Of a stretch of 64,000 nucleotides of DNA, positions 744 to 42,939 are shown in pieces. The stretch covers positions 21,121,545 to 21,185,544 of the forward strand of contig OX637404.1 of the NCBI GenBank assembly GCA_951799425.1, given 5' to 3'. Under the pieces are notes generated by a model that was given only the letters and a program-made list of their open reading frames with translations, searched no databases and was not told where the DNA came from. The DNA comes from Ilex aquifolium (lineage: Eukaryota; Streptophyta; Magnoliopsida; Aquifoliales; Aquifoliaceae). The translations under genes and the position numbers were made by a program. Position 1 is the stretch's first letter. The number at the start of each line of letters is the position of its first letter.

Positions 744-1880
744 TTACTGAAAGAACTTCTTAAGATGCTCAGCATTCCAAGAATGACGTAGGACATTTCC
801 TTCTTCTGTTTGTAACTCATAGTTCCTAGGTCTAATTATTTTTGAAATGATGTAGGGGCCTTCCCAATTTGGCCCCAATTTCCCGTGCGTGGGATCCCTT
901 CTTGCAAGCAAAAGCTTTCTAAGCACAAGATCTCCTACCTTGAAGCTCTTGTGTCTGACCTTCCTGTCATAGTACTTTGCGGTCTTTCTCTGATAACTTT
1001 GAATGTGTTGCAGAGCTCTTTCTCTCTTTTCATCTAAGAGATCAAGATTTAGCAGAAGGGATTCATCGTTGTGCTCAAACTCTGCGAACTCAATTATGGG
1101 GGATGGGAATCCTATCTCCACAGGTGATACTGCTTCGGTTCCGAAAGCCAAAGCAAACGGCGTTTCTTGAGTTGCTGTCCTGGGGGTTGTTCTGTATGCC
1201 CACAACACCTCTGGAATATATTCTACCCATTTTCCCTTCAAAGACTCAAGCTTGGTCTTCAAGGCTGCTTTAATCGTTCTGATTGTCACCTCCGCTTGTC
1301 CATTAGACTGTAGATGGGCTGGTGCTGAAAAATAATTTTTTATCCCTAACTCTGCACAAAACTTTCTGAACTTAGGGTTGTCAAACTGCTTCCCATTGTC
1401 AGAAACAATTGCTCTAGGTACCCCAAATCTACAGACTATAGACTTCCATGTGAAGTTCTGAATCTTCTGCTCCGTGATTGTTGCCAGAGGTTCCACCTCT
1501 GTCCATTTAGTGAAATAGTCCACCCCAATGATGGCAAACTTACACTGCCCTATGCTGGTGGGAAGAAGGCCAAGAATGTCCAGTCCTCATTGTTGGAAGG
1601 GCCAAGGGCTTACCACCGATGTTAGGAGCTCTGGTGGACAATGAGAGACGTTGGCATGTATCTGACACACCTTACACCTTCCAACCAGATCGGTGGCATC
1701 CTTTAGCATAGTGGGCCAATAATATCCCTGCCTCAAGGTTTTTCCTGCCAGCGCTTGAGCTCCGATATGATTACCACAGATTCCTTCATGGATCTCCCTA
1801 AGTATGTAATTAGCATCCCCATCTCCTACACATTTGAGGAGAGGCATCGAGAATCCTCGCTTATATAAGTTTCCCTGCAA
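744..1880 (-). other. Tat element integrase region
   Basis: Two recognisable parts are present in element order. First is an H2C2-type zinc-binding segment (HEGICGNHIGA ... GRCKVCQIHAN). Second is the catalytic core, beginning MDYFTKWTEVEPLA, with VSDNGKQFDNPKF and the downstream SNGQAEVTIRTIK block, then the WVEYIPEVLWAYRTTPRTAT signature and a chromodomain-less C-terminal tail (YYDRKVRHKSFKVGDLVLRK). This is the standard Ty3/gypsy integrase layout for the Tat group. It is a fossil component. Confidence 0.85.
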
Positions 1881-1895
1881 AATGGAGAATCTGGC

Positions 1896-2480
1896 TTACC
1901 TTACCCTTAACTTTGCGACCTCCCTAGGGTTTGCTGGCAAGGTTCCGTTCTGAAGATATTCCCTGATGGAGTCCATCCAGCTTGGTGGGGAAAGAACTGG
2001 GAACACTTCTTCCTTCTCAACTCTTACTGATGGCTCCGCCAAATGCTCTACTGGTATCAACCTATCCAAGTTCTCATGTGAGGCAGTTGCTAGTCTCGCC
2101 AGCACATCTGCTCGAGAATTCTCCGATCTAGGGACATGTATAATCTTGACTTGCACAAACTTCTTGATTAATTCCTGTACCTTTCTGAGGTAAATGATCA
2201 TTTTCTCGCCCTTAGCCTCATAAGACTCTTCTATCTGCTTTACCACGAGCTGGGAGTCACTGCAGATCTCCAGCTGTTCTGCCTCCATTGAGTGAGCAAG
2301 ATTGAGCCCTACTATAACAGCCTCATACTCCGCCTCATTGTTTGAGGCCTTAAACCCAAACCTAAGTGCTTATTCAACATCTATTCCATCAGGGGAGGTC
2401 AAAATTAAGCCAGCACTGCTGCCTTGGGCGTTGGCAGCTCCATCTACTGAAAGTTTCCATGTTGGGAGGTCAGGTATCAG
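1896..2480 (-). other. Tat element archaeal-type RNase H (aRNH)
   Basis: A second RNase H follows the reverse-transcriptase RNase H. It includes LSVDGAANAQGSSAG near its start, NNEAEYEAVIVGLNLA in the middle and CSDSQLVVKQIEESYEAKG then VPRSENSRADVLARLA at the end. That block belongs to the archaeal-like RNase H found only in Tat-lineage gypsy elements, and it is the strongest lineage marker here. Fossil component; borders are approximate. Confidence 0.75.
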
Positions 2481-2499
2481 CTGCGTGGCCTCCATGGGT

Positions 2500-4046
2500 G
2501 TTCATGTTGTGAATTCTGCAATGAAATCTGCCAGTATTTGTCCTTTGATGGCTGTTCTTGGCTTGTACCTGATATCGAACTCACTAAGCTCGATGGCCCA
2601 TTTAACCAGCCTTCCCGAAGTTTCTGGTTTACGTAATACGTGCTTTATCGGCTAATCTGTAGGGATCTCGATAGTATGAACTTGGAAATATGGCCTAAGC
2701 CTCCTGGCAGTCGTAACTAAGGCTAAAACAAGTTTCTCCATCTTTGGATATCTCTCATCTGCCCCCCTCAGAGCCCTGCTACAGTAATAAACTGGTTGCT
2801 GAGCTCTGTTTTGCTCCCTTACTAACGCTGCACTTGTTGAGAAATCTGAGACACCTAAATAGAGGGTAAGGACCTCGCCTTCCAATGGGCTTACCAAAAT
2901 GAGTGGGGAGCTCAGGTAATCTTTCAACGTTTTGAACGCTTCCTCACACTGGGTATCCCACTGGAAGACCTTCTTTAGGACTTGAAAGAAGGGTTGACAC
3001 TTGTCGCTTGATCTGGACACAAAACGACTTAAGGCAGCTATTTTTCCTGTCAGACGTTGTATCTCCCTTGCGCTGGATGGTGGTTGCATATCCAGTGATG
3101 TCTTTACTTTTTCTGGGTTAGCCTCTATTCCTGTGCTGTTAACTATGAAACTCATAAATTTTCCAGCGAAAACTCCAAATGCACACTTGGCGGGATTGAG
3201 CTTCATTTTGTATTCCTTCAGGACCTGGAAAGATTCTGCCAAGTGCTTGATGTGGAGCTCTGCTTTCAGTGATTTGACCAACATATCATCAATGTAAACC
3301 TCCATGGTCGTCCCAATCTGCTTTTGGAACATTTTATTCACCAAGTGTTGAGAAGTGGCTTCAGCATTCTTTAATTCGAAGGGCATAATCTGGTAACAGT
3401 ACGTCCCTTGCTCGGTTATGAAGGAGGTCTTCTCCTGGTCATTAAGATCCATCCTAATCTGATTATACCCCAAGAAGGCGTCCATGAAGCTGAGGAGCTC
3501 ATGTCCAGCGGTGGCATCCATAATCAAATCTATCCGAGGTAAGGGAAAACTGTCTTTAGGACAAGCTCAATTAAGGTCGGTAAAGTCAATACAGAGGTGC
3601 CACTTGTCGTTGGTCTTCTTAACGAGGACCACATTGGCTAGCCACACTGGGTAATCCACCTCCCTAATGGCTCTGGTATGGAGAAGTTTGTTGACCTCTT
3701 CATTGATGGCTTTTTGACGTTCTGGGGTGAAACTGCTCCTCTTTTGTTTGATGGGCTTGCAGGTAGGATTCACACTGAGCTTATGTGTGATGACTGAGGA
3801 GTCGATACCCTCCATGTCTTCTTGTTTCCAGGCGAACACTTCCATATTTTTCCTCAGAAATTGGATGAGAAAATCTTTAATCTCTCTGCTCAGCTTGGAC
3901 CCTACATAAACAAGATGTTCTGGCTCCTCGTCGAGCTGTATAGACTCCAGTTCTTCCGATGGGATTGGTCTGGTTTCCAGCTCATCTTTCATGTTAAGTT
4001 CATCCAGTTGGATGTTCTCAACCTCTTTCCTCTTCACAGATGCCAT
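2500..4046 (-). other. Tat element reverse transcriptase and RNase H region
   Basis: Reverse-transcriptase landmarks in element order: the thumb-side leader with EHLVYVGSKLSREIKDFL, the ITHKLSVNPTCKPIKQKRS block, VWLANVVLVKKTNDKWHLCI, SFMDAFLGYNQIRM, the catalytic box YIDDMLVKS, then RNase H (PVYYCSRALRGADERYPKME). The order and wording are typical of plant gypsy elements of the Tat group. Fossil component. Confidence 0.85.
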
Positions 4047-4076
4047 GTAGCACTCCCTCGCTACACGCTAGTCTCC

Positions 4077-4739
4077 TCAGACCGCTCCAACTCCATTCTC
4101 TGTTGGAAATTTGACAACCAGGTGGTAGGCAAAAGGGATAGCCCTCATAGAATTGAGGGAAGGTCTTCCAAGCAAAATATTATACGCAGAAGGTGCATCA
4201 ACCACTAAGAACCTCACGGTTGTAGTGGCTTGGCAAGGCGGGTCACCTAGGGTGAGCACGAGCTGAATTGACCCTAAGGGCAGCACCCTTTCTCCTGAGA
4301 AACCCAGCAAGTGAGCACTCACAGGCTCGATTTTTTCCCTTCCTATGTCCATGTTATCGAATGCAGACGCAAAAATGATGTCTGCCGAACTATCGTTGTC
4401 AATCAGTACTCGATGAACAGTTCTGTTGGCTACCACAGCTCTTACTACCAAGGGGTCATCGTGGGGATACTGGCATCCTTCCAAGTCTGAATCTAAAAAA
4501 GTGATAGCCGTGTCTAGGCGCGGTGTTTTGGACACAGTATGTACTTCTAGAGCTTCTCCGGCTCTGATCCTTCGGAGGTGAGCCTTTCTGGCTGAGCTGG
4601 ATTCCCCTCCTCCTGTAAATCCTCCATATATTACTCTGATCTCCCCCAGAGGTTGTTGATGTGGTGCAGGTGCTTGCTGTTGAGGTGGCGGAGGTGGAAG
4701 AGCTCGATTTTGATTATCATGGGCCACAAAGTAACGCAA
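4077..4739 (-). other. Tat element protease region
   Basis: This segment carries the conserved gag-protease linker (GGFTGGGESSSARKAHLR), a conserved PHDDPLVVRAVVANRTVHRV strand and the retropepsin-like block around VLIDNDSSADIIF, followed by YNILLGRPSLNSMRAIPFAY. This is the usual wording of the Tat/Ogre-type aspartic protease domain. It overlaps slightly with the end of the gag region. Fossil component. Confidence 0.8.
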
Positions 4740-6241
4740 ACTGCCCCTGTTGGATTAAAAACTCAATCTCCTTCTTTAGCTGAATGTAATCATCGGTGTG
4801 GTGACCATGGTCTCTGTGGTAGTCACAATATTTTGTGAGGTCTCTCTTTGCTAGGTCTGCCTTCATCCGAGGTGGCCACCTCATGAACTTTTCGTTCTGG
4901 ACCTCATATAGGACCTGGGACACTGTGGCGGTGAGCGGGGTGAATTGTCGGGGTGCGTACCTAGGCTGCAGCTTAGGTTGAGGAGGGCCTAAACGGTCTC
5001 TAACATTTCCTCTTTTCTTTGGGGAGCGATCTCTGTCCCTCCCTGGAGATCTTTCTCGTTCTCTTTCTTTCTTGGGACTTCGGTCCCTCTTCTTATTTTC
5101 CTTTCCTTTCTCCTTTTGTGATGATGCGCTCCCCACCTTGGAAAGGAGTGCTTCCTCACCATTTATATATTTTTTTTGTTTTGGCCAACACCTCAGCCAT
5201 GCTTACTTGGGGATTATTTGATATAGAGAACATCAAGTCTTTTGACTGCACTCCTAATCCTGCAATGAAAGCAGTGATGACAAACTTTTCATCTGAGACA
5301 TCTACCTTCAGAGATTCTGAATTGAATCTCTATACATAAGATCGCAGGTTCTCATCAAGTATTTGCTTTACATTCAATAAATGATAGCTCGGCTTTCTGT
5401 AGATCCGGGCTCCTATGAAGTGAGATACGAAAGAAATGGAGAGTTCTTTGAAGGAAGAGATCGAAGTTGGGGGGAGCCTATTGAACCATGCTAAGGCTGA
5501 CCCCTTCAGAGTGATGGCAAAGGCCCTACACCGCACTGGATCCTAGTATCCATGCAGCTCTATTTGGTTTTTATAGGTGTTGAGGTGGTCCACAGGGTCC
5601 TTTGTCCCATCGAAAACCTCTATCTGGGGCATTCTAAACTTTGAAGGGAGAGGGAAATGCAACACCCCAGCAGTGAATGGGGATTTCGTTTGTTGCACCA
5701 AGGCATCCATCGTTACTGGAGTCTTAACCCTCACTGCCTCCCTCATGTGGCTGAGCTCTTGTTGGATGTCCTTGAAGCGTTGTTCCCAATATTGCTCCAT
5801 CATTTCCTGCTGGAAAGGGAGAAAATCATTTTTCTCGACCCCTTCATTTTGGCTCTGCACTTTTTCATTGTCACCATTCCTAGGTGACGGATGGGGTGCC
5901 TGGATGTTCTCCCCTCCTTCATTTACTTCTCTGAGGGGATCAAGGTGTTGTTGTTCCCTGCGGGGGGGATCGTTCTGGCCTTGCTGGGCTGGTTGTGTTT
6001 GTTGAGGACCTCGTAAGAGCTTCAAGAGCTCTTCATTTTGTTGAAATAAACGCTGGTTGACCAGACGAAGGGCGTCTAATTCATTGTTGGTAGGGGAATC
6101 CACCACAAGAGGATTATCTCTGGTGGCGGGCACGAAATCATGAAGGTTTTCTGGTTGTCTTCCACTAGTGACCTCTTGTTGGTTCTGCATCCTTGGGAGA
6201 TTCATCTGACTTCTGCTCATATTGCGTGTAGAGACCATCAA
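4717..6241 (-). other. Tat element gag region
   Basis: The gag region starts with a Q/N-rich, low-complexity N-terminus (MMVSTRNMSRSQMNL), then a predicted coiled stretch, then the retrotransposon-gag core (FDGTKDPVDHLNTYKNQI, FAITLKGSALAWFNRLPPTS). It ends with a basic RDRSPKK-rich stretch and the CDYHRDHGHHTDDYIQLKKE block. In the Tat group this last block replaces the usual CCHC knuckle. Fossil component, broken. Confidence 0.8.
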
Positions 6242-6300: not shown

Positions 6301-6892
6301 TGATGGTGTTATTTCACGTGAATGAGCAGTGGGTTCGAGTGCAATAGCAAGGAACAGATCCGAGCTACAAGGATCGTGAATTGGTTGGTGAATGCCCAAG
6401 TTGTCTGAGGTGTGGTGTGTGAAATAAAGTGGAATTATAGTGGTTCACCGGCTGATGAGCTCGGCTAGTCCACTCTACAATGGAGGCTCTTGCTCCTAAC
6501 GTGTATATTTATTCAAAATGTGTTTACAGATTGCTCTTCGATGCCATTCCGGTCCCCCCTCCCCCTTTGGTTGGGGCCATGTACAGTACTTATAATACCA
6601 TTCCTAACTCTAAGATATCTCTACCGAGACCTTTGCCCTTCATCCATGGGATCTCCCTTAATTCTGGGAGAGGATCTTGGTCAATTGAGTGTTTTATGCT
6701 TGTGATGCTGCTTGGCTATTGTTTCGGGGGTGCCAGCTGTCATCCAGCTACTTCTTTATCATTTCGGCTATTATTTCGCTTGGGAGGAGCTCGAGTTCTG
6801 GTCCTCTGAGCTCTGCAGGTCTTGTCTGGTTTCCTGACTTGAGCTCAACTCCTGAGCTCACACTTAGTCAAATTTCTCTTTGGGTATCATCA
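6301..6892 (-). repeat. 5' LTR of the Tat element
   Basis: This 592-bp segment begins TGATGGTGT next to the primer-binding site and ends GGTATCATCA, with short TGATG/CATCA inverted ends. Its borders are confirmed by an independent, clearly related solo LTR at 42371-42939, which starts and stops at the same motifs. Shared internal blocks include ATAGTGGTTCACCGGCT and GAGCTCGGCTAGTCCACTCT. The five bases after it (GTATA) are the candidate right target duplication. The partner lies off the left edge. Confidence 0.85.
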
Positions 6893-8007
6893 GTATATAT
6901 ATTTGCAATGGGAATGTCTGAGTTACGGGCATTGCCAGTTCATTTACTGGATTGGTGACTACATGTACTAATCAGAGTGATTAATGTATTTACTGAATGA
7001 CTGACTTAACAATCGATGAAGTATGTCCAATTGGACTTCGAATTAATTTTTTCTAACATGACCCGATAGGAATGGAAGTCTTGTGCGTATATTGCTAATA
7101 TTTTTGAAACTTCAATTCTTTTATTTTGTTCAACATTACATAAAGATTTTTTCGCTCGAATAAAATATTCATTGCAATGGTGTCATTAACATGTGATGTC
7201 ACAAATAAGCATTAAACCATTGCGTGAGTTAGGAATAGTCGCGATGAAGGAAGCTATTATTTTTGCACAATAAAAAGGGATCGATGATCCTTAAGCTTGT
7301 GACTCGGAGTACTCGGGGGTTGAACCTACAATGTTGAGATCTATTTTGGCAAATATTTGGCAAGAATTACAAAAGTTTAGAATCGTTGAACTGAGCATAG
7401 TGCGTAGAACTGACAATCAGGTGGCACATAATTTCTATTTTGTAAAAAATTCAATCAAATTTAATTATTTATCGGGTAATTTATTAGGTCCTTGTGAGCA
7501 TGATTCAAATCAAAAAGAGATATTATCAGAGTCTAGTGAAATAAGAGGGGGGTATGAACTTTGTCGAAATTGGGTATGAATTTTTTCGAAATTGACAAAA
7601 TTTATTATTGGATTTGTGATTTCTTGGAAGAAATTGAAAACTTAATTAACCAGTTAGATTTATTGAAGAAAAAATTACAAGATGGAAAAAACAAAAAGAG
7701 AAAGAAAATGAAAAATGTTTACAATAGTTAATAGCAATATAGCACACGAACCCCGCACAAATAGCCCAGAAGTGTGAGATTAGGTCTTGATGAACTGTAA
7801 GCCTGAATGTCAGAGATTCAACCCTCATTGATGTCTCTCGAGTTTAACTGATACTTGTAATTTGTGGGTGATTGTAGATATTCAGACTTTACTCTGATAA
7901 GAATGAGTCCAAAATGATCTAGCTTGGAAATATTCCTCATTATTAAAAAGAAATATAGCAATTGAATAAAACCAAAAATTAGAAAAACAATATATATATA
8001 TATATTA
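6893..8007. other. Gene-poor DNA between the Tat element and the pararetrovirus
   Basis: No supported gene. At 7331-7579 (plus strand) a short reading frame carries ILANIWQELQKFRIVELSIV followed by RRTDNQVAHNF. It resembles the end of the plant RNase H domain found in LINEs (RVT_3 type: a basic pair, then N-x-VAH). It is too short and isolated for a firm call and would be a decayed LINE remnant. The stretch ends in a (TA)n tract at 7991-8006 that touches the pararetrovirus arm. Confidence 0.35.
7991..8006. repeat. (TA)n tract at the left outer end of the pararetrovirus
   Basis: About eight TA units directly abut the left arm. Endogenous pararetroviruses, including rice tungro-like copies, are often found in TA-dinucleotide repeats, so this is likely the integration site. 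Confidence 0.8.
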
Positions 8008-8325
8008 CTACAATAGCAAAATCAGCGGAAGGCATAGCAAATTCACAGTGAATTTTATGAACAGAAATAGCCATTGAAATTGAACAATCACAAACTGTAG
8101 ATATAAACAAATTTCAAATATATAAATGAAATTACAAACAATACTTACAACACTAACACTTAGAGGGTTAGTGGAGATAAGACTTCATAAGTAGAGAGGA
8201 ATCTGCCAAATAAAACAACATTAAAGCTCTTCATTTGAGGCTTACAATTTTGAGAAGGTAGGGAGAGTATTTTCAAGGCTTGTAGTAGTCTAACAAGACT
8301 TGAGAAACAACTGAAATCAGAAACC

Positions 8326-8334
8326 CTTATATAG
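8326..8334 (-). promoter_or_regulatory. TATA box of the pararetrovirus promoter, left arm
   Basis: This is the mirror copy of the right-arm TATA box (CTATATAAG on the minus strand). It would fire leftward, away from the centre of the inverted repeat. Both viral promoters therefore point outward and neither by itself would transcribe the arms. Confidence 0.55.
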
Positions 8335-8708
8335 GAGTAAGGATTTTGAAAGTAATCATTTCTTTTTGAAATCAACTCTGGGTAAAATGCATTCACCTTC
8401 TGCTTTTGGCTGGAAAGGTGGAGTAAACTGCTTTTACTCAGGGTAAAGTTTGACAAAATGGGACTAGAGGGCCCAAAGGCTGTCAGGGAATTCGCTTTTG
8501 GTGGAAAAGCAAGGGTAGAATGCTTTTACTAGGGGAAAAGCAAACTGATTGGCAATTTGTCTGGAATCTGTCGGTTGCTTTACTAGGGGGAAAGCACCGG
8601 GTAAATTAAGTGATATCTTATCCTTACATGTGATAGGCAGCTTTTCCCTCTTGTGTGAGAAGAGAGTAGTGAGTGAAGCTGTCACAAGTAAAAACAAGCA
8701 TCACAACA

Positions 8709-10088
8709 TCACGGGGTGGTGATGTCTGCTTCATCAAGGTCATCATATCCTTCATATGGATCTTGGGCATCCTGGTATGGGTCCAGGGCTGGAGTAACAG
8801 ATCCGGCTGAAGAGCTGGGAGATGATGAATCCTGGCTGGCGGCTTGCTGGATCAAATCCTGAGCCATTTTGAGAAGCTCCGCAGCTGACGGCTTAATTGG
8901 CTTACTGGAGTCCTTAGATGAGGACTTCTTCGGCTTCACTTTGGAGGGTCCTGTAGACTCTTTAGGCTTTTCTTCTGGGGAAACCCTTAGAGTCGGCAAG
9001 GCCTTCATAGCTGGAGTAGAAGGAGGTAAGGCTGTAGGGACCATTACTGGGGTCAGTACCTTGACAGGAAAGTCCTTCTGGACATCAGCAATTATGGCAT
9101 CATATTTAAATCTGGGCCACCATTTGACAGAGAACTGCCTGGCAACATAATTAGAAATTATTCTCCATTGCCATCTGCAAATCCAAGCAATTCTGTACCT
9201 GCAAATAAATGTTAGCAAATTTGGAATAGGGAATAAGGACTGCTGTTTACTAGAAACATAAGCAGAACAGAAGTAAGTATACTGATCTTGAAGATCAGCA
9301 GGAAAGATTTCAAGAATGGGGCCATGAACTTGCCACCACCTTACAAACCAGGAAGGAATCTGGCTTTTGAAATCTTTATCAAATTGAACGAACCAGGAAT
9401 AAGTTAATGACTCATCCTGATAGAGCATAAGAATAGTCCATGACTCGATGTAGTCATAGTAGTTGAACTTCTTATGGGTTCCTTCGAGATCTCTGAGTAA
9501 AGAAGGATGAGATTCCCACTCTTTAATGGATAAAATCTTTTTAATAAAAAGAGAGTGATAAATTGTTTTACTGGGGTCATTCTTATCAGGAATAGGTTTG
9601 ATATGAATGGATCCAGTAAGAAATAGGATATCTTGGTAAAATTCAAAAGTCCTTTCCGGGTCATGAGGGACAAAAGTCCATCCCTCTCCAAGATAGGCTT
9701 TAAGAAGAATTTGGATATCATTAATGTGAGCATGAGCAGGCTCAATAGCAAAGACATTATGAAAATTGGGCTTGTCAATATATTCTATCTTTGGGCCTTT
9801 TGGGGTTGGTCGATAATAGGGATTAATCAGTAGGGTAGAATCTGGTGGAGGCATTTGGGCCATTTGGGAGAAAGTAGCAATAGGGACAACAGTAGGCCTG
9901 AGATGGTGACTAACTGGTCTACCAAGAGGCTGAAATCTGTTGGCAATTTGGACGGCACTAGGTGGGCCTGGATAAATTTGGGTAATTGGCTTTGGGTTTG
10001 GAGGACCCAATGTTAATGGTAATTTGCGATCTCCCTTCCCCGGGTTTTTAGAGGAAGTACCGGATTTGTGGGACTTACTGTCCGCCAT
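8709..10088 (-). other. Pararetrovirus ORF2 (about 52 kDa, unknown function), left arm
   Basis: A 459-residue reading frame starting MADSKSHKSGTSSKN overlaps the end of the upstream polyprotein frame by 14 bases. The N-terminal third is proline-rich (LTLGPPNPKPITQIYPGPPS). The middle is a globular, tryptophan-rich region (SWFVRWWQVHGPILEIFPAD; RIAWICRWQWRIISNY). The C-terminus is lysine/serine-rich, then acidic. Florendoviruses are known to carry a ~50-kDa ORF of unknown role at this position. The frame looks whole and its protein appears identical to the right-arm copy. I do not assign a function. Confidence 0.8.
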
Positions 10089-12000
10089 GTGGTTCCTGCA
10101 AAAATTCACGAGTTAGAAAATCAGGTATGCAGTTATTACTGCCCTTAATATATTCTATGTCAAAATCAAAAATACTTAAAATAGCTTGCCATCTTGCAAA
10201 AATTTGCTTACTAGCAATATTTTGAACATCTTTTTCAAGTACGTATTTAGCAGACTTGCAATCAACACGCACAATAAATTTTTGATTTAAAATATCATCC
10301 TGGAATTTTGAGATACACAGGACAATAGCTAAAATTTCTTTTTTAATAGTACTATAATTGGCTTGTGCTTTGTTCCAAATACCGGAATGAAAGCGAACAA
10401 TTTGTTCAGGAGAATTAGGAGATTCTCGCTGAAGGAGAATACCACCGTATCCAATGTCGGAGGCATCAGTTTGAATAATTTTAAAAGAATCAACTGAAGG
10501 AATACCAAGACAAGGCAAAGTTATGATATATTTTTTGACTTGCTGGACAATAGAAGTATGTTCAGAGGTCCAAGGAGAAGGATTTCCTTTGAGTCTGTCA
10601 TACAGAGGTTTGACGGTTGATCTGAGATTCTGATAAAAGTCAGAAACATAATTCAGAGAACCTAAAAATCTTTGGAGTTGAGTTTTGTCAAGAATTTCAT
10701 CAGGAAATTTATCAGCAAACTGAATAGCTCTGCTGATGGGAATAATGGTGGATTGTTGGATATCATATCCAAGGAATCTGACAGAAGTTTGAAACAATTT
10801 AATTTTTCTGGCAGAGATGACTAGACCACTATGTCTAACAGTCTCTAAAAATACATTTAAATGTTTCCAATGTTCTTCAATAGACCTGCTAAAGATGAGA
10901 ATGTCATCAATATAGGTTATAGAACAATGACTTAAATGATTAAAAATTTCATTGATAATATTTTGAAATTCACTAGGTGCATTTTTTCAACCAAAAGGTA
11001 CAACATTCCATTCATAATGACCAAAAGGTATTGTGAATGCAGTCTTATACCTATCTTCAGGAGATATCAGTATTTGTCAATATCCACTTTTTAAATCAAA
11101 TTTTGAAAATACAACAGAATTTTTTAATCTTTTAATCAGGTTTTGTTTATTTAGAATAGGATACCTGATCCATTCCAAAACAGCATTTAAAGGCTTATAA
11201 TTAATAACAAGTCTTGGTGTGCCTCTTTCTAACTCTGCATTTTTCATAGCATAGAAAGCTGGACAAGACCAAGGAGATTTTGACTTGCTAATAATTCCAT
11301 TTTTAAGTAATTCAGAAATTTCCTTCTTACATGTTTCCATTAAATAATGATTCATCTGAATTGGTCTTGATTTAGTGGGAATATCTTTTTCACTAAATCC
11401 TTTAATGTAAGGAAGTTTTACACTATGTTTTTTCCTATGCCAGAAAGCTGTAGGAAGGTTAGAGCAAACTTCTTCTTCAATTTTTTGTTGAAATTGATTA
11501 ATTTTTTCAATCAGAATTGGATTAGTTAATTGATCAGAAATTCTTTTGTGATTTATTTCTTCTTGAAGAAATTTCACTTGGTTCTTTTTCTGATTAATTA
11601 TTCTGAGATATATAGAATCACTTTTAAGTTGTCTTAATTCTTTAATCTCAGGTTTAAGAATAAATTTAAATGTTACAGATTGTCCTAAAGGATTTGTAGA
11701 TAATCCTTCAATATTTGTAGTAAAAGGGTATAACAAATATATAAAAGGTAATCTTAAGATAACCTGATCTGTCATATCTTTTACTAAGATAAATGATGTT
11801 TTAAAACAAACATTATCCTGACAAATATGAGCTTTAGGCAATTTGTAGCAACATTCATTTTGCTGCCATTGGCAGAATTTAACCTTTCAAGAGTTTTTTC
11901 ATAGAATTTGGTAGGAACAATTCCTTCTTGAATACAGTTAACATCTGCTCCTGTATCAATTAAAGCAATTGTATCAAGTATAAAATCATTATTAATGATT
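10075..12000 (-). other. Pararetrovirus protease, RT and RNase H region, left arm
   Basis: In viral order: the protease block ALIDTGADVNCIQEGIVPTK, RT motifs (PRLVINYKPLNAVLEWIRYP; VVFSKFDLKSGYWQ; YIDDILIFSRSIEEHWKHLN; SVRFLGYDIQQST), then RNase H (IIQTDASDIGYGGILLQRES; YSTIKKEILAIVLCI; VRVDCKSAKYVLEKD). These are typical of Caulimoviridae, where no integrase follows RNase H. Fossil; broken. Confidence 0.85.
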
Positions 12001-12448
12001 ATTCGTACTTGAGAATACCATTTTTGTAAATTAATTTTATTAACAGAATTAATTTGGTTATCAGTTTGTGAACACCCATCTGGCGATGGCAGCTTCGTTA
12101 CACCAGAAGTTTTCATCAAAACAGGGGAGGTTACTGGTATCCGCTGGGAAAGTGTCCGAGTTGATAAATCTGTTTCAGTATCAAATTGTTTATTATCTGA
12201 AACTTTAGGTTCCAGAGGACTGGTATTGGACATGGATAAAAAACTCAAAGTTTCAGCAAAGATTTTATCTTGTGCTTTTAAGTCTTTTATCTCAACTTTT
12301 AATTTATTGACTTCACATTGGAGATCTTGTAAAGTGAGTTCTTTCTTTTTCTCTTTACTAAATCTTTCCATTGTTTTGTTAATGCTAATTAATTGTTTTT
12401 CACTTGACAATTGTTTGTTATCTTTTTTAACAAACAAATCTTTGAGAT

Positions 12449-14865
12449 TTTTTATGTATTTTACCTTAAGTTCAGGATCTTCAATTTTGCTGATCAAATC
12501 TATTAGGATTTGTTCTTCTTCAGCTTGCTTTGTGATTACTCTAATTTTTTTACAACAATTATCCTTACATCCTAGTTTGATGTCCGGTTCAGAGGAATCA
12601 TTTGTACTAGGGTGATCATCCGAAGAGTCTTCAGGACTACTAGTGGAGTCTGAAGTTTCTTCTTTTTCTGGAGGATTATTTATCCTGAAAATTCTAAGAA
12701 TTTCTTCTGTTTCATTTTCAGCTAGATTTAATAATTTAACTTGTTTTTTAATTGGACATTCAGGACTAATGTGGCCTGGTTTTCCGCAGTTAAAACATTT
12801 AATATCATCTTGGGCTTTACCTTTACCAGATGTTTTCTTCTTAGAATCTTTTCTAGACTTAGAAGATTTGTGAGGTTTTCCGCTAGATTTTTTATAAAAT
12901 TCAGGCTTAGAAAATCTTTTCTTACTACGTTCGTAGTGAGATTTGGACTTAGAATAAGCTTTATGCTTTCTATGAGATTTGTGTTTTCTGTGGCTAGTCG
13001 ATGGTGCTACTGGGGGGAGACCATACTGTTCACAGAAATTTCCCATTTCATATTTAGCTTTATTTTTATCATTTTGCAATTGTTTACTGAGTTTCATATC
13101 AATACACATCCTAAGACCTTCCTTTTGGATGGTACTGATCAATTGACCATAGGTCAGGGAGTCATATTCTATGATTCCTGTGTCCTTAGCAAGGGCTTCT
13201 CTAATCTTATGGGCAAATAAACTAGGTAAACCATTAACAAATTTTTCTTTCCAAAAAGATTTATTACAGTCTGAACGGTTCATTACCCGTGAGACAAAAA
13301 CATCCTTATACCATCTGAAATCACTAAGTGTGGGACACTTAAGATTACTAAGCTGGTCATGGATCCTAGCTTCAATGTTACTAGGGGTTCCAACAAAATG
13401 TTTAATTATGGTGAAAATTAAAGTATTTAAACTATCAGGTTTTGCTCTTCCAATTCTTTCATCAAAAACTGGAATACCATCATCATTTAAAACAACAGCA
13501 TGTCTAATTTCATCTCTGGAATCTTGGGTAAGATAATTATCCCACCAGCTTCTAAGGACGCCTGTGAACCCTGAGGTGACTAAGTCAACTAAGTCGGGTT
13601 CAGGAGTGTCAAGGTTAGTAACATAACTATTAATAACCATAGACATGTGATGAATTTTATTTAAAATTTCTTGTTCACTTAAACCATCTATGTTCCATTC
13701 ATAGAGTTTGTTTGACTGAACAGAGAATTGGTTAGAAATATTTTTTTCTTCAAATTATAAATCAGGAGGTGTTGGTCTGGGGTACCAATTTTTTGTGGTA
13801 CTGGTTGGATTTGGGAAAACCAATTTATTGATTTGATGTGTTTCAAAAGCTTTTTCTAATTCTTTTATTTCAACATCAGAAAAACTTTCATCAGTGCTGG
13901 TTTCTGCATCTGAAGTTTGATTTATGACAGTTACTTGGGAGGTTTGTGATGTCTCTGGTTGGGCATCTAATTTCCTAAGTAACTGGTCAATTTTGTGAAT
14001 TCTGAGTGTATCAGCAATTCATAATTTAGATCTATCTTCAGGTAAAGTGACTAGAGGTTTTTCTAACTTTTTACCTGTAGATGATAATTCAATCTTATCA
14101 ATCTTTGTTTCAATTTTATCTAACTGTTTTCCTATGGTAATTAGGCTTTGGTTAGTAAAATTGGTTTGTTCAACAATTTTCTTTTCAAATTTTGCTAAAT
14201 TATTCTGTTCTGCTGTCTTCTTATCTGATTCACTACAGGGAATCTTAAAGGGAGACGCAGTAAGTGCAGTATCAGCATGTGTGAAAGTAAAAGTCTCAGT
14301 GGGAGGGTGACTGGAGGACATGGTTCCTGAGTCAACTGTTTTCCACTTATGTTTTGAAATGACTTTTACATCTTTACAGCAAGAATCAACATAATCAAAG
14401 AATTGAATTTCAGATTCTAATTTGTGCATTGTTTTTACCCATTGAATTTTTATTTCTTGGATCTGTTGGGAATTAAATCTTTTAAAGAAATCTTTTTTCC
14501 TAAGTTTATTTTCTTCAGATTCAATTTCTTTTAATAATTTAAACATATTGGGCATAAAACAAAAATTAGATTCTTTTTTAATTACAAGAAGCTGATGACT
14601 GATAGGTTCTTCAGTATGACTTTCTAGTTCACTTCTGGAAGGACTTAGAGTAGGAGATGGAGTAAAATCATCTTCCTTTTTCTCTTTTATTTCTTGTTCT
14701 TTAAATCTAGAATAAGAAGTATTGTACGGAGTATAATAAGGTCTACTGATTTGGGGTGAAGAATTATCAATTCCTTTCATTTTAAGTTTTCTTTCTAATT
14801 CTTCAGAAATTTCTTTGTCTCGTTTGGAGACTCTGGAGTAGGATTCAGATCTCCTGCCCTCATTG
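12449..14865 (-). other. Single-copy spacer: coat-protein and movement/linker region of the pararetrovirus
   Basis: The 2417-bp spacer continues the left-arm copy upstream in viral order. It holds the coat-protein-like region with a conserved capsid block (FWKEKFVNGLPSLFAHKIRE), a lysine/serine-rich nucleic-acid-binding stretch and the zinc knuckle CFNCGKPGHISPECPIKKQ. Before these lies a charged, coiled-coil linker and the tail that follows the movement protein (RVSKRDKEISEELERKLKMK). The movement-protein core itself is not in the window. Fossil; together with the left arm it is the longer of the two viral copies. Confidence 0.8.
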
Positions 14866-15299
14866 ATCTCAAAGATTTGTTTGTTAAAAAAGATAACAAA
14901 CAATTGTCAAGTGAAAAATAATTAATTAGCATTAACAAAACAATGGAAAGATTTAGTAAAGAGAAAAAGAAAGAACTCACTTTACAAGATCTCCAATGTG
15001 AAGTCAATAAATTAAAAGTTGAGATAAAAGACTTAAAAGCACAAGATAAAATCTTTGCTGAAACTTTGAGTTTTTTATCCATGTCCAATACCAGTCCTCT
15101 GGAACCTAAAGTTTCAGATAATAAACAATTTGATACTGAAACAGATTTATCAACTCGGACACTTTCCCAGCGGATACCAGTAACCTCCCCTGTTTTGATG
15201 GAAACTTCTGGTGTAACGAAGTTGCCATCGCCAGATGGGTGTTCACAAACTGATAACCAAATTAATTCTGTTAATAAAATTAATTTACAAAAATGGTAT

Positions 15300-17238
15300 T
15301 CTCAAGTACGAATAATCATTAATAATGATTTTATACTTGATACAATTGCTTTAATTGATACAGGAGCAGATGTTAACTGTATTCAAGAAGGAATTGTTCC
15401 TACCAAATTCTATGAAAAAACTCTTGAAAGGTTAAATTCTGCCAATGGCAGCAAAATGAATGTTGCTACAAATTGCCTAAAGCTCATATTTGTCAGGATA
15501 ATGTTTGTTTTAAAACATCATTTATCTTAGTAAAAGATATGACAGATCAGGTTATCTTAAGATTACCTTTTATATATTTGTTATACCCTTTTACTACAAA
15601 TATTGAAGGATTATCTACAAATCCTTTAGGACAATCTGTAACATTTAAATTTATTCTTAAACCTGAGATTAAAGAATTAAGACAACTTAAAAGTGATTCT
15701 ATATATCTCAGAATAATTAATCAAAAAAAGAACCAAGTAAAATTTCTTCAAGAAGAAATAAATCACAAAAGAATTTCTGATCAATTAACTAATCCAATTC
15801 TGATTGAAAAAATTAATCAATTTCAACAAAAAATTGAAGAAGAAGTTTGCTCTAACCTTCCTACAGCTTTCTGGCATAGGAAAAAACATAGTGTAAAACT
15901 TCCTTACATTAAAGGATTTAGTGAAAAAGATATTCCCACTAAATCAAGACCAATTCAGATGAATCATGATTTAATGGAAACATGTAAGAAGGAAATTTCT
16001 GAATTACTTAAAAATGAAATTATTAGCAAGTCAAAATCTCCTTGGTCTTGTCCAGCTTTCTATGCTTGAAAAATGCAGAGTTAGAAAGAGGCACACCAAG
16101 ACTTGTTATTAATTATAAGCCTTTAAATGCTGTTTTGGAATGGATCAGGTATCCTATTCCAAATAAACAAGACCTGATTAAAAGATTAAAAAATTTTGTT
16201 GTATTTTCAAAATTTGATTTGAAAAGTGGATATTGGCAAATACTGATATCTCCTGAAGATAGGTATAAGACTGCATTCACAACACCTTTTGGTCATTATG
16301 AATGGAATGTTGTACATTTTGGTTGAAAAAATGCACCTAGTGAATTTCAAAATATTATCAATGAAATTTTTAATCATTTAAGTCATTGTTCTATAACCTA
16401 TATTGATGACATTCTCATCTTTAGCAGGTCTATTGAAGAACATTGGAAACATTTAAATGCATTTTTAGAGACTGTTAGACATAGTGGTCTAGTCATCTCT
16501 GCCAGAAAAATTAAATTGTTTCAAACTTCTGTCAGATTCCTTGGATATGATATCCAACAATCCACCATTATTCCCATCAGCAGAGCTATTCAGTTTGCTG
16601 ATAAATTTCCTGATGAAATTCTTGACAAAACTCAACTCCAAAGATTTTTAGGTTCTCTGAATTATGTTTCTGACTTTTATCAGAATCTCAGATCAACCGT
16701 CAAACCTCTGTATGACAGACTCAAAGGAAATCCTTCTCCTTGGACCTCTGAACATACTTCTATTGTCCAGCAAGTCAAAAAATATATCATAACTTTGCCT
16801 TGTCTTGGTATTCCTTCAGTTGATTCTTTTAAAATTATTCAAACTGATGCCTCCGACATTGGATACGGTGGTATTCTCCTTCAGCGAGAATCTCCTAATT
16901 CTCCTGAACAAATTGTTCGCTTTCATTCCGGTATTTGGAACAAAGCACAAGCCAATTATAGTACTATTAAAAAAGAAATTTTAGCTATTGTCCTGTGTAT
17001 CTCAAAATTCCAGGATGATATTTTAAATCAAAAATTTATTGTGCGTGTTGATTGCAAGTCTGCTAAATACGTACTTGAAAAAGATGTTCAAAATATTGCT
17101 AGTAAGCAAATTTTTGCAAGATGGCAAGCTATTTTAAGTATTTTTGATTTTGACATAGAATATATTAAGGGCAGTAATAACTGCATACCTGATTTTCTAA
17201 CTCGTGAATTTTTGCAGGAACCACATGGCGGACAGTAA
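15300..17238 (+). other. Pararetrovirus protease, RT and RNase H region, right arm
   Basis: Same modules as the left arm in the same order on the plus strand, ending EFLQEPHGGQ just past the ORF2 start. The RNase H part looks identical between the arms. Fossil; broken. Confidence 0.85.
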
Positions 17239-18604
17239 GTCCCACAAATCCGGTACTTCCTCTAAAAACCCGGGGAAGGGAGATCGCAAATTACCATTAA
17301 CATTGGGTCCTCCAAACCCAAAGCCAATTACCCAAATTTATCCAGGCCCACCTAGTGCCGTCCAAATTGCCAACAGATTTCAGCCTCTTGGTAGACCAGT
17401 TAGTCACCATCTCAGGCCTACTGTTGTCCCTATTGCTACTTTCTCCCAAATGGCCCAAATGCCTCCACCAGATTCTACCCTACTGATTAATCCCTATTAT
17501 CGACCAACCCCAAAAGGCCCAAAGATAGAATATATTGACAAGCCCAATTTTCATAATGTCTTTGCTATTGAGCCTGCTCATGCTCACATTAATGATATCC
17601 AAATTCTTCTTAAAGCCTATCTTGGAGAGGGATGGACTTTTGTCCCTCATGACCCGGAAAGGACTTTTGAATTTTACCAAGATATCCTATTTCTTACTGG
17701 ATCCATTCATATCAAACCTATTCCTGATAAGAATGACCCCAGTAAAACAATTTATCACTCTCTTTTTATTAAAAAGATTTTATCCATTAAAGAGTGGGAA
17801 TCTCATCCTTCTTTACTCAGAGATCTCGAAGGAACCCATAAGAAGTTCAACTACTATGACTACATCGAGTCATGGACTATTCTTATGCTCTATCAGGATG
17901 AGTCATTAACTTATTCCTGGTTCGTTCAATTTGATAAAGATTTCAAAAGCCAGATTCCTTCCTGGTTTGTAAGGTGGTGGCAAGTTCATGGCCCCATTCT
18001 TGAAATCTTTCCTGCTGATCTTCAAGATCAGTATACTTACTTCTGTTCTGCTTATGTTTCTAGTAAACAGCAGTCCTTATTCCCTATTCCAAATTTGCTA
18101 ACATTTATTTGCAGGTACAGAATTGCTTGGATTTGCAGATGGCAATGGAGAATAATTTCTAATTATGTTGCCAGGCAGTTCTCTGTCAAATGGTGGCCCA
18201 GATTTAAATATGATGCCATAATTGCTGATGTCCAGAAGGACTTTCCTGTCAAGGTACTGACCCCAGTAATGGTCCCTACAGCCTTACCTCCTTCTACTCC
18301 AGCTATGAAGGCCTTGCCGACTCTAAGGGTTTCCCCAGAAGAAAAGCCTAAAGAGTCTACAGGACCCTCCAAAGTGAAGCCGAAGAAGTCCTCATCTAAG
18401 GACTCCAGTAAGCCAATTAAGCCGTCAGCTGCGGAGCTTCTCAAAATGGCTCAGGATTTGATCCAGCAAGCCGCCAGCCAGGATTCATCATCTCCCAGCT
18501 CTTCAGCCGGATCTGTTACTCCAGCCCTGGACCCATACCAGGATGCCCAAGATCCATATGAAGGATATGATGACCTTGATGAAGCAGACATCACCACCCC
18601 GTGA
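17225..18604 (+). other. Pararetrovirus ORF2 (about 52 kDa, unknown function), right arm
   Basis: This is the mirror copy of the left-arm ORF2: 459 residues, same start and stop context, and as far as I can compare by eye the same protein sequence throughout. The start codon sits inside the end of the polyprotein frame with a 14-base overlap, an arrangement that in this virus family suggests translation by leaky scanning or reinitiation. It looks whole. Two whole copies of a viral frame inside otherwise broken copies is notable but may simply reflect youth. Confidence 0.8.
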
Positions 18605-18978
18605 TGTTGTGATGCTTGTTTTTACTTGTGACAGCTTCACTCACTACTCTCTTCTCACACAAGAGGGAAAAGCTGCCTATCACATGTAAGGATAAGATAT
18701 CACTTAATTTACCCGGTGCTTTCCCCCTAGTAAAGCAACCGACAGATTCCAGACAAATTGCCAATCAGTTTGCTTTTCCCCTAGTAAAAACATTCTACCC
18801 TTGCTTTTCCACCAAAAGCGAATTCCCTGACAGCCTTTGGGCCCTCTAGTCCCATTTTGTCAAACTTTACCCTGAGTAAAAGCAGTTTACTCCACCTTTC
18901 CAGCCAAAAGCAGAAGGTGAATGCATTTTACCCAGAGTTGATTTCAAAAAGAAATGATTACTTTCAAAATCCTTACTC

Positions 18979-18987
18979 CTATATAAG
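18979..18987 (+). promoter_or_regulatory. TATA box of the pararetrovirus promoter, right arm
   Basis: CTATATAAG lies about 375 bases after the ORF2 stop, where Caulimoviridae carry their pregenomic-RNA promoter. Transcription would start about 30 bases downstream and run rightward, out of the arm toward the eIF5A gene. Upstream are repeated short blocks (CTAGTAAA, AAAAGC) that may be enhancer motifs. Activity is inference. Confidence 0.6.
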
Positions 18988-19305
18988 GGTTTCTGATTTC
19001 AGTTGTTTCTCAAGTCTTGTTAGACTACTACAAGCCTTGAAAATACTCTCCCTACCTTCTCAAAATTGTAAGCCTCAAATGAAGAGCTTTAATGTTGTTT
19101 TATTTGGCAGATTCCTCTCTACTTATGAAGTCTTATCTCCACTAACCCTCTAAGTGTTAGTGTTGTAAGTATTGTTTGTAATTTCATTTATATATTTGAA
19201 ATTTGTTTATATCTACAGTTTGTGATTGTTCAATTTCAATGGGTATTTCTGTTCATAAAATTCACTGTGAATTTGCTATGCCTTCGGCTGAATTTGCTAT
19301 TGTAG

Positions 19306-19930
19306 CATTAAAGTTGGATATATATATATATATATATATATTAATAATTTATAATTGTCCCAGGGAGATTCAATTTCTCTTGAAAGCCCAACAATAAATA
19401 AATAAAAGAGAAATTTTGAGGCTGGTCATTCTATATGGACTTATTTGAAGATAAGTCCGACAAATAAACTTATTTGTTATGAAGTCCGTTTTTTGTCAAT
19501 TTTACCAAACTGTCTTTTTCAGTTTTCCCATTTGTGAATCGTTTAGTGGGAAAAACAATCGAAAATTGCTTCGTTGTGATATTGTGGAAAAACGTTGATG
19601 TTACTATGATGAAATAGTAACTTAAATAGTAACATGATCAAATATGTTCTAACTTAGTGAACCATTTGATTTTAGAAGGCTGGTATGGTGTTATATGTAG
19701 AAGTGGTATGTTGTTATATGCAGGGTTGGGTATTATTTGTATATATTTGTTTGAAAAATAGATGAAATTATGTCCAGATTGTTAGTGCAAAAAATAACAT
19801 GAACAGTAACGTGACTTAAATTTGTTCCTATTTAGGGAATCACATGTTTTAAGAAAATATATTTTAATGTTACATTTTTAAGTGAGTTTGTAATATTGTT
19901 GCACGATTGATTATTGTTTGTATTAGTACA
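19306..19930. other. Non-coding DNA with AGTAAC-type repeats
   Basis: No gene seen. The stretch is A/T-rich and repeats short AGTAAC/AGTAACATGA motifs near 19615-19640 and 19805-19820. The same motif family resumes right after the solo LTR at about 20680-20745, so the LTR appears to have landed inside an older repeat. Confidence 0.5.
19319..19341. repeat. (TA)n tract at the right outer end of the pararetrovirus
   Basis: About eleven TA units lie 13 bases beyond the end of the shared arm sequence. With the left tract, both outer ends of the viral structure sit in TA repeat. Confidence 0.8.
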
Positions 19931-42370: not shown

Positions 42371-42939
42371 TGATGGTGTAATTTTACACGAATGAGCAAT
42401 GAGTTTGGGTTCAATGGTATGGGATGGATCTGAGCTACGAGGCTCATGAAATTGTGTGTGAGTGCTCTAGTTATCTGAGGTGCGGTGTGTGTAACACGTA
42501 GAAATATAGTGGTTCACCGGCTTTTGAGCTCGGCTAGTCCACTCTTCAATGGAGTCTCTTGCTCCTCGAATCTATATTCATCTAGAAAATATTTTACAAG
42601 ATGCCCTTGATGCCTTTTGATTGAGGCGTTGTACAATATTTATAGTGTAATTCCTATCTCTAAGGGATTTTCACCGAGATCTTTGTCCTTCATTCGTGGG
42701 ATCTTCCTTGATTTTTGGGAGAGGATCTTGGTTAGTTGAGAGTTTTGTGCCTTGATTATAGCTTTCCATTGCTTTGAGGATGCCATTCACTAGCCAGCTG
42801 TTTCCCTTTCAATTTCCCGTTTGTTTTCTTTGAGGAGAGCTTGAGGTCTGGATTGCGGAGCCCTGGTTACTGTGTTTGACCTCCTTGTCTGACCTCCATG
42901 TCCGAGCTCATACTTAGAGCTTTTTTCTAGGTATCATCA
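42371..42939 (-). repeat. Solo LTR of the same Tat family, 5-bp target duplication AAACC
   Basis: This 569-bp segment starts TGATGGTGTAATTTTACACG and ends GGTATCATCA, the same ends as the LTR at 6301-6892. It shares long blocks with that LTR (ATAGTGGTTCACCGGCT, GAGCTCGGCTAGTCCACTCT). It is flanked by a perfect duplication AAACC at 42366-42370 and 42940-42944. Nothing of gag-pol is attached, so it is a solo LTR. By eye the two LTRs are perhaps 70-80% alike, so this copy and the 5' end element are not recent siblings. Confidence 0.92.

What the first reader, a model, noticed from the sequence alone, without database searches (positions are those of the whole stretch)
8008..19305. Head-to-head inverted repeat of an endogenous pararetrovirus, 4.44-kb arms
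Two near-identical arms (8008-12448 minus, 14866-19305 plus) face away from a 2.4-kb single-copy spacer. Any transcript crossing the locus would fold into a hairpin with about 4.4 kb of stem, covering protease, RT, RNase H, ORF2 and the viral promoter region. Plants turn such RNAs into 21-24-nt small RNAs, so this locus could be a natural immunity or silencing source against the related virus. The geometry is seen; the function is inference.
Basis: partly seen in the sequence, partly recalled or inferred. Interest (0 to 1): 0.87.

Follow-up and report, generated by a model that had tools for sequence, protein, structure and literature searches.

The report
Palindromic endogenous plant virus insertion
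Two incomplete copies of an ancient plant DNA virus sit back to back in this plant chromosome, a layout that recurs elsewhere in the same genome and hints at how such viruses get trapped at fragile TA repeats; any silencing role is possible but untested.

Summary
Arms 8008-12448 (-) and 14866-19305 (+) are 99.55% identical over 4441 columns (19 mismatches, 1 gap). The element is florendovirus-like: a 5'-truncated copy on the minus strand and a shorter copy on the plus strand. The "spacer" is the rest of the minus copy. Both outer ends lie within about 10 nt of the viral tRNA-primer site, next to host (TA)n; the inner join shares 4 bp.

It is not unique: I fetched eight more head-to-head loci in this genome, arms 98.9-99.9% identical. 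Convergent (5) and direct (6) clusters also exist, so orientation bias is unproven. (TA)n follows the pre-primer-site end motif at 50 sites and precedes the opposite one at 2; not each site was checked.

Best reading: repair of a broken TA microsatellite captured primer-site ends of related viral DNA. In 5 of 8 loci both arms share a private frame lesion: one template, or later homogenisation.

Silencing is plausible, with precedents in tomato and soybean, but no RNA was examined, and the predicted viral promoters point outward. New member of a known kind.

The parts
8008..12448 (-). left arm: outer 4.4 kb of the minus copy (end of ORF1 with protease, RT, RNase H; ORF2; promoter region)
14866..19305 (+). 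right arm: truncated plus copy; 99.55% identical to the left arm
12449..14865 (-). single-copy spacer = remaining 5' part of the minus copy (DUF7588, DUF7746, caulimovirus coat domain, zinc knuckle); viral, not host
14866..14869 (.). 4-bp microhomology (ATCT) at the inner join of the two copies
   Evidence: the sequence next to that point in three other loci begins with the same four bases
19306..19317 (+). 12 bp of the plus copy beyond the repeat, ending with the first TGG of the Met-tRNA primer-binding site
   Evidence: by comparison with loci C1a and C12b
7991..8004 (.). host (TA)7 at the left outer edge
19319..19340 (.). host (TA)11 at the right outer edge
8709..10112 (-). ORF2, stop-to-stop 467 aa, no Pfam match
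17201..18604 (+). ORF2 of the plus copy, stop-to-stop 467 aa, no Pfam match
10075..10986 (-). RT (C-terminal part) and RNase H piece of ORF1
   Evidence: RVT_1, RT_RNaseH_2, RT_RNaseH
16327..17238 (+). RT/RNase H piece of the plus copy
11784..13754 (-). ORF1 piece: DUF7746, coat domain, zinc knuckle, aspartic protease
14922..15530 (+). aspartic protease piece of the plus copy
18979..18988 (+). TATA-box-like CTATATAAGG, pointing outward (rightward)
   Evidence: promoter role inferred from a recalled motif
8325..8334 (-). same TATA-box-like motif in the left arm, pointing outward (leftward)

Best explanation
This is an endogenous florendovirus-like caulimovirid insertion made of two partial copies. 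Most likely a double-strand break in a TA microsatellite was repaired with viral DNA. On each side of the break the viral end next to the Met-tRNA primer-binding site was joined to the (TA)n, helped by TA in the primer-site sequence TGGTATCA. The inner, truncated 5' ends were then joined to each other through 4 bp of microhomology, which forces a head-to-head order with primer-site ends outward. The two viral DNAs were of one defective lineage, perhaps copies of one molecule, and the arms were probably homogenised later by gene conversion. Shown: geometry, end positions, (TA)n flanks, recurrence, shared lesions, difference-free blocks. Inferred: the break, end-joining, conversion, and the idea that the reactive end is a plus-strand 3' end copied from the tRNA. 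A read-through transcript would form long dsRNA, but none is shown.
For: Both outer ends lie within about 10 nt of the primer site beside (TA)n. Inner join with 4-bp microhomology. Eight further head-to-head loci, arms 98.9-99.9% identical, while ORF2 of other loci is 83-97% identical to this one. In 5 of 9 pairs both outer ends stand at or within about 10 nt of a TA run (C5a's right run is only (AT)4), and 12 of 18 outer ends lie within about 40 nt of the primer site. In 4 of those 5 pairs the two outer joins fall at different viral positions, so each was probably made separately. Genome-wide, 50 sites with (TA)6 after the pre-primer-site motif (19 of them ending inside the primer site by my classification) against 2 before the opposite motif, with 107 and 56 intact sites as baselines; Fisher p=3.5e-6. 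Shared private frame-changing indels in 5 of 8 loci. Difference-free blocks in C14, C5a and C7b, P=7e-6, 2.5e-7, 6e-6.
Against: Four of the nine pairs (C9a, C7a, C10a, C6a) do not show (TA)n at both outer ends; C10a on both sides and C6a on the left run through the primer site into more viral DNA. Convergent and direct clusters exist (5 and 6), so the divergent order is not significantly favoured (9 of 14, p=0.42). C17's repeat includes about 1.7 kb of flank, which simple capture does not explain. Some loci join (TA)n at viral points far from the primer site (C3a left, C11, C15b, C3b). Shared lesions are not expected if the two molecules came independently from a healthy virus population. The 50-to-2 contrast rests on two motifs of different length and conservation, on sites not each checked to be viral (reversed control 5 rows), and on baselines that contain tandem arrays.
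Confidence: 0.6

Rival explanations
1. Silencing or immunity locus: the inverted repeat is transcribed into a hairpin, diced into 21-24-nt siRNAs, and kept because it represses the virus family. Not exclusive with the integration account.
For: Geometry and 99.55% arm identity. PMC10377300 (passages) reports inverted-repeat EPRVs in tomato giving 22-nt siRNA that can trigger degradation of matching transcripts, and caulimovirid-derived inverted repeats in soybean giving 22-nt small RNA.
Against: No RNA data. The TATA-like motifs of both arms point outward. At least nine such loci fit a neutral by-product. Arm differences show no clear excess in CG or CHG context over background.
Confidence: 0.25
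2. Single-molecule origin: one viral DNA was copied into an inverted dimer by fold-back or template switching, before or during integration, and the dimer was then joined to (TA)n. Overlaps with the best explanation, which leaves the source of the two DNAs open.
For: Shared private frame lesions in 5 of 8 loci. In C10a the inner ends lie only about 40 bp apart in virus coordinates. C6a and C17 show several short orientation or position switches at the centre.
Against: Most resolved inner joins are very asymmetric (2.4 kb in this locus, 4.8 kb in C9a), as expected for separately broken ends.
Confidence: 0.35
3. Late inverted duplication of one provirus already in the chromosome.
For: Shared lesions. 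In C17 the repeat includes host flank and the two outer joins match.
Against: In C14, C5a, C2 and C7b the two outer joins sit at different viral positions, and self-BLAST shows no repeat between the C14 flanks.
Confidence: 0.12
4. Assembly artefact.
For: No reads were available.
Against: 20 arm differences, no repeat between the flanks, recurrence at eight other loci with their own arm sequences.
Confidence: 0.02

Closest known systems
Endogenous florendoviruses in TA microsatellites (Geering et al. 2014, PMC4241990; passages seen)
   Same: Domain order, unit size near 8.2 kb, ORF2 without known domain, (TA)n flanks; repair of breaks by end joining was proposed there
   Different: The words head-to-head, inverted and palindrom do not occur in its main text; here paired head-to-head copies recur and the viral end at (TA)n is placed at the tRNA primer site
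Cotton eCPRVE locus (PMC10458927; passages seen)
   Same: Two head-to-head caulimovirid copies, about 15 kb, 98.98% identical
   Different: The passages describe this arrangement for one locus (also found in a second cotton species); no (TA)n flanks appeared in the passages I saw
Rearranged inverted-repeat EPRVs of tomato, 22-nt siRNA areas (Valli et al. 2023; paper not held; known from passages of PMC10377300)
   Same: Inverted-repeat EPRV geometry
   Different: There siRNA was measured; here none was available
Rice ERTBV junction hotspots at intergenic region and discontinuities (Kunii et al. 2004, PMC526188; passages seen)
   Same: Viral ends concentrate at preferred sites tied to replication
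   Different: Here the preferred end is resolved to the pre-primer-site side and its (TA)n partner

Membership tests
Florendovirus-type Caulimoviridae | ORF1 with MP, CP with zinc finger, AP, RT, RNase H in that order | tested here: met
   in the window (all but MP); MP found in the corresponding upstream piece of locus L025, a part the window copies lack
Florendovirus-type Caulimoviridae | Second ORF of 45-58 kDa with no known domain, in a different frame from ORF1 | tested here: met
   Stop-to-stop 467 aa, 0 Pfam families, frame differs from the RT/RH piece by its coordinates; 4 homologues, one with an organism name, Shorea laevis. Mass not computed
Florendovirus-type Caulimoviridae | Genome 7.2-8.5 kb with a Met-tRNA primer site | tested here: met
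   Three 8202-bp intervals (and one of 8472) in a tandem array on C10; TGGTATCAGAGC in relatives; the window keeps only its first bases
Florendovirus-type Caulimoviridae | Placement in the florendovirus clade by AP-RT-RNase H tree | not tested
   No reference florendovirus proteins were fetched and no tree was built
EPRV inverted-repeat siRNA locus (tomato TSA type) | Inverted-repeat EPRV | tested here: met
EPRV inverted-repeat siRNA locus (tomato TSA type) | Transcribed, with dense 22-nt small RNAs | not testable with these tools
   No RNA data; predicted viral promoters point outward

The most novel reading that the evidence does not exclude
Caulimovirid DNA has one preferred capture end: the plus-strand 3' terminus that copies the tRNA primer (TGGTATCA) pairs with broken TA microsatellites. 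Capture of this end on both sides of a break builds head-to-head proviruses again and again, and arm-to-arm gene conversion then keeps them near-identical, so that integration itself manufactures long dsRNA-capable repeats of the virus.
Probability: 0.3. Interest if true: 0.72.

Novelty: new member of a known kind. Interest (0 to 1): 0.48.

Why it matters
How viruses without an integrase enter plant chromosomes is called speculative in the 2023 review (PMC10377300, passage). A genome with at least nine paired insertions and about 50 candidate (TA)n joins turns the break-repair idea into a countable test: which viral end is captured, with what microhomology, and how paired copies arise. If such pairs are a routine product of integration, plants would often acquire inverted repeats of their viruses, raw material for siRNA-based resistance.

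Tried and rejected
Rejected: a unique locus (recurrence). Rejected: a strict rule that pairs are always divergent; the first search gave 7 divergent of 7 inverted pairs, but later searches added convergent ones, total 9 to 5 (p=0.42). Rejected: my early idea that all loci end at the same coordinate as the window; that was partly an effect of using the window as reference. Methylation-type decay of the arms: transitions in CHH 98, CHG 37, CG 9 against cytosine background 76%, 19%, 5%, not convincing. Related viral contigs in IMG/VR: 7 pattern matches, none confirmed. Rfam at gathering threshold: no match. Species not identified; a formin-like exon at 61230-62012 has its four best organism-named matches in asterids (Ipomoea, Erythranthe, Sesamum, Withania), lower ones in many other groups.

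Left out: C17 from the lesion count; no pair from the arm-divergence table, where the C10a differences near the arm end look like misalignment and were not removed. For the pair counts five short fragment hits were left out; the pairs and the tandem were read by eye. The list was cut by the tool.
Full report
OBSERVATION. Self-comparison of the window returns one long inverted repeat: 14866-19305 against 12448-8008, 4441 columns, 99.55% identity. The aligned arms differ by 19 substitutions and one 1-nt gap. The coordinates given are exact.

WHAT IT IS. Pfam scans of separate pieces give, on the minus strand, DUF7588 (ORF 14019-14906, whose first bases cross the inner join), then DUF7746, caulimovirus coat domain, zinc knuckle and aspartic protease (ORF 11784-13754), then RT and RNase H (10075-10986). 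ORF2 (8709-10112, 467 aa stop to stop) has no Pfam match. The RT/RNase H piece matches 831 proteins; organism-named ones among the 120 listed are plant proteins (Quercus, Solanum, Vitis and others), apart from one labelled as an archaeal metagenome bin. The plus copy begins after the zinc knuckle and repeats protease, RT, RNase H and ORF2. So the locus is a 5'-truncated minus copy followed head-to-head by a shorter plus copy, and the 2.4-kb spacer is viral. In relatives the Met-tRNA primer site lies about 1.2 kb upstream of the minus copy's first base, and from about 10 to about 130 nt past its last base, depending on the locus. The piece upstream carries the movement-protein domain (L025); the window copies lack that part. 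In a tandem array on C10 three intervals are 8202 bp (one is 8472), the unit size of the virus. Layout and size match florendoviruses as described in PMC4241990 (passages). Clade membership by tree was not tested.

ENDS. The right copy ends ...CATTAAAGTTGG and then (AT)n; the left copy ends about 10 nt before the primer site and then TAATATAT. The inner join carries 4 bp of microhomology (ATCT). Other loci join TA runs at TTTTGGTA, TTGGTATCA, CTTCCGC or TTGTA; some have TA runs at viral points far from the primer site (C3a left, C11, C15b, C3b). A genome-wide pattern for the pre-primer-site end followed by (TA)6 gave 93 rows, 50 distinct sites, against 5 rows for the reversed control; 19 of the 50 end inside the primer site by my own classification. 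Not each of the 50 was checked to be viral. The mirror pattern for the other end gave 4 rows, 2 sites (control 1 row), and both of these keep the whole primer site. Intact baselines were 107 and 56; Fisher p=3.5e-6. With only the 19 sites ending inside the primer site set against the same baseline, p=0.024. The patterns differ in length and conservation and the baselines contain tandem arrays, so this contrast is indicative.

RECURRENCE. ORF2 of the window has 41 matches in the own genome (40 of 508 candidates scored), in 33 clusters; 7 clusters hold a divergent pair, none a convergent one, and one direct neighbour is a fragment inside C6a. Searches with other pieces added divergent C2, junction-found C17, and five convergent pairs (C20 twice, C3 twice, C4), and six direct clusters counting the C4 tandem seen with the 5' piece. 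So 9 divergent and 5 convergent, p=0.42: orientation bias is not shown. Each search scored only its best 40 candidates, so all counts are lower bounds. All nine divergent pairs, the window included, were self-compared: arm lengths 2.1-7.4 kb, identities 98.9-99.9%. Five have TA runs at or within about 10 nt of both outer ends (C14, C17, C5a, C2, C7b), though C5a's right run is only (AT)4 and C7b's left end lies about 200 nt short of the primer site. C9a ends near the primer site without (TA)n. C7a has one such end; its left end was not resolved. C10a runs through the primer site on both sides, and C6a on its left side, while C6a's right end lies about 220 nt short. A convergent pair on C20 joins two pre-primer-site ends directly, with no (TA)n.

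ONE EVENT, ONE TEMPLATE. Arms within a locus are far closer to each other than to other loci, so the pairs are not two unrelated insertions. In 5 of 8 loci both arms share a frame-changing indel that at least 75% of the other aligned loci lack; arm-specific ones total 2; three loci (C7a, C9a, C6a) show none (C17 not included). ORF1 of the window is broken in both arms at the same place just after the protease match, which is not so in C3a, C12a, C2 and C9a. In C14, C5a, C2 and C7b the two outer joins lie at different viral positions, which argues against late duplication of a finished provirus there. C17 differs: its repeat includes about 1.7 kb of flank, so a later or break-induced duplication is likely at that locus. 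Arm differences are clumped: C14 has a 2330-bp block without any (P=7e-6), C5a 2885 bp (P=2.5e-7), C7b 1225 bp (P=6e-6), C6a 740 bp (P=0.004) and C10a 828 bp (P=0.046); C17, C7a, C2 and C9a show no significant block. Gene conversion between arms would explain the blocks; a mosaic template could too. The shared lesions do not lie in the largest blocks of C14, C5a and C7b, and the one in C2 has arm differences within about 25 bp on either side, so conversion alone does not account for them easily. Of the 19 window substitutions, 12 have one allele unseen in other loci (6 in each arm) and 7 have both alleles seen.

MECHANISM. I favour break repair at (TA)n with capture of the primer-site end of viral DNA on both sides, then joining of the truncated inner ends. 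(TA)n capture by end joining was proposed in PMC4241990 and reviewed in PMC10377300 (passages); preference for replication-linked viral ends was reported for rice, and cited for tobacco, in PMC526188 (passages). That the plus-strand 3' end copies the tRNA primer and pairs through its TA is inference from recalled replication biology.

SILENCING. Inverted-repeat EPRVs with 22-nt siRNA are known in tomato, and caulimovirid-derived repeats in soybean (PMC10377300 passages; the primary tomato paper is not held). Here the TATA-like motifs at 18979 (+) and 8325 (-) point outward, so the viral promoters would not read through the repeat. No RNA could be examined.

PRINT. In eight searches the listings led me to one head-to-head EPRV locus, in cotton (PMC10458927, passages). 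I saw no account of recurrent head-to-head loci or of end-specific (TA)n joins, but I saw passages of only five papers (PMC4241990, PMC10377300, PMC10458927, PMC526188, PMC5491270; a word search in a sixth, PMC10641527, found nothing), and the library lacks most subscription papers, so this is weak evidence of absence.

VERDICT. Real and correctly described; not unique; a new member of a known kind, whose main value is as evidence on how caulimovirids integrate.

Noticed in passing
744-6241: Minus-strand pieces with RT, RNase H and integrase core domains: remains of an LTR retrotransposon, probably of Ty3 type, to the left of the viral locus.
   Followed up: no
G000:C13:22247986-22275969: Fifteen primer-site matches on one strand, fourteen of them at a regular 1857-bp spacing: a viral fragment that seems to have become a satellite-like array.
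   Followed up: no
G000:C10:20638550-20671649: Head-to-tail array of the 8202-bp viral unit ending at (TA)n.
   Followed up: no
G000:C17:17738092-17755310: Palindrome that includes about 1.7 kb of flank on each side of the viral part, followed on the right by a further viral end with TA.
   Followed up: partly
19165-19218: GTAAGT and CTACAG about 43 nt apart in the outward leader of the right arm; splice-like by recalled motifs, but short for a plant intron.
   Followed up: no
61230-62012: Exon of a formin-like protein 20 relative (PTEN_C2 domain); the four best organism-named matches are asterids.
   Followed up: partly
6301-6706 and 42371-42756: A dispersed repeat shared within the window, 75% identical.
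   Followed up: no
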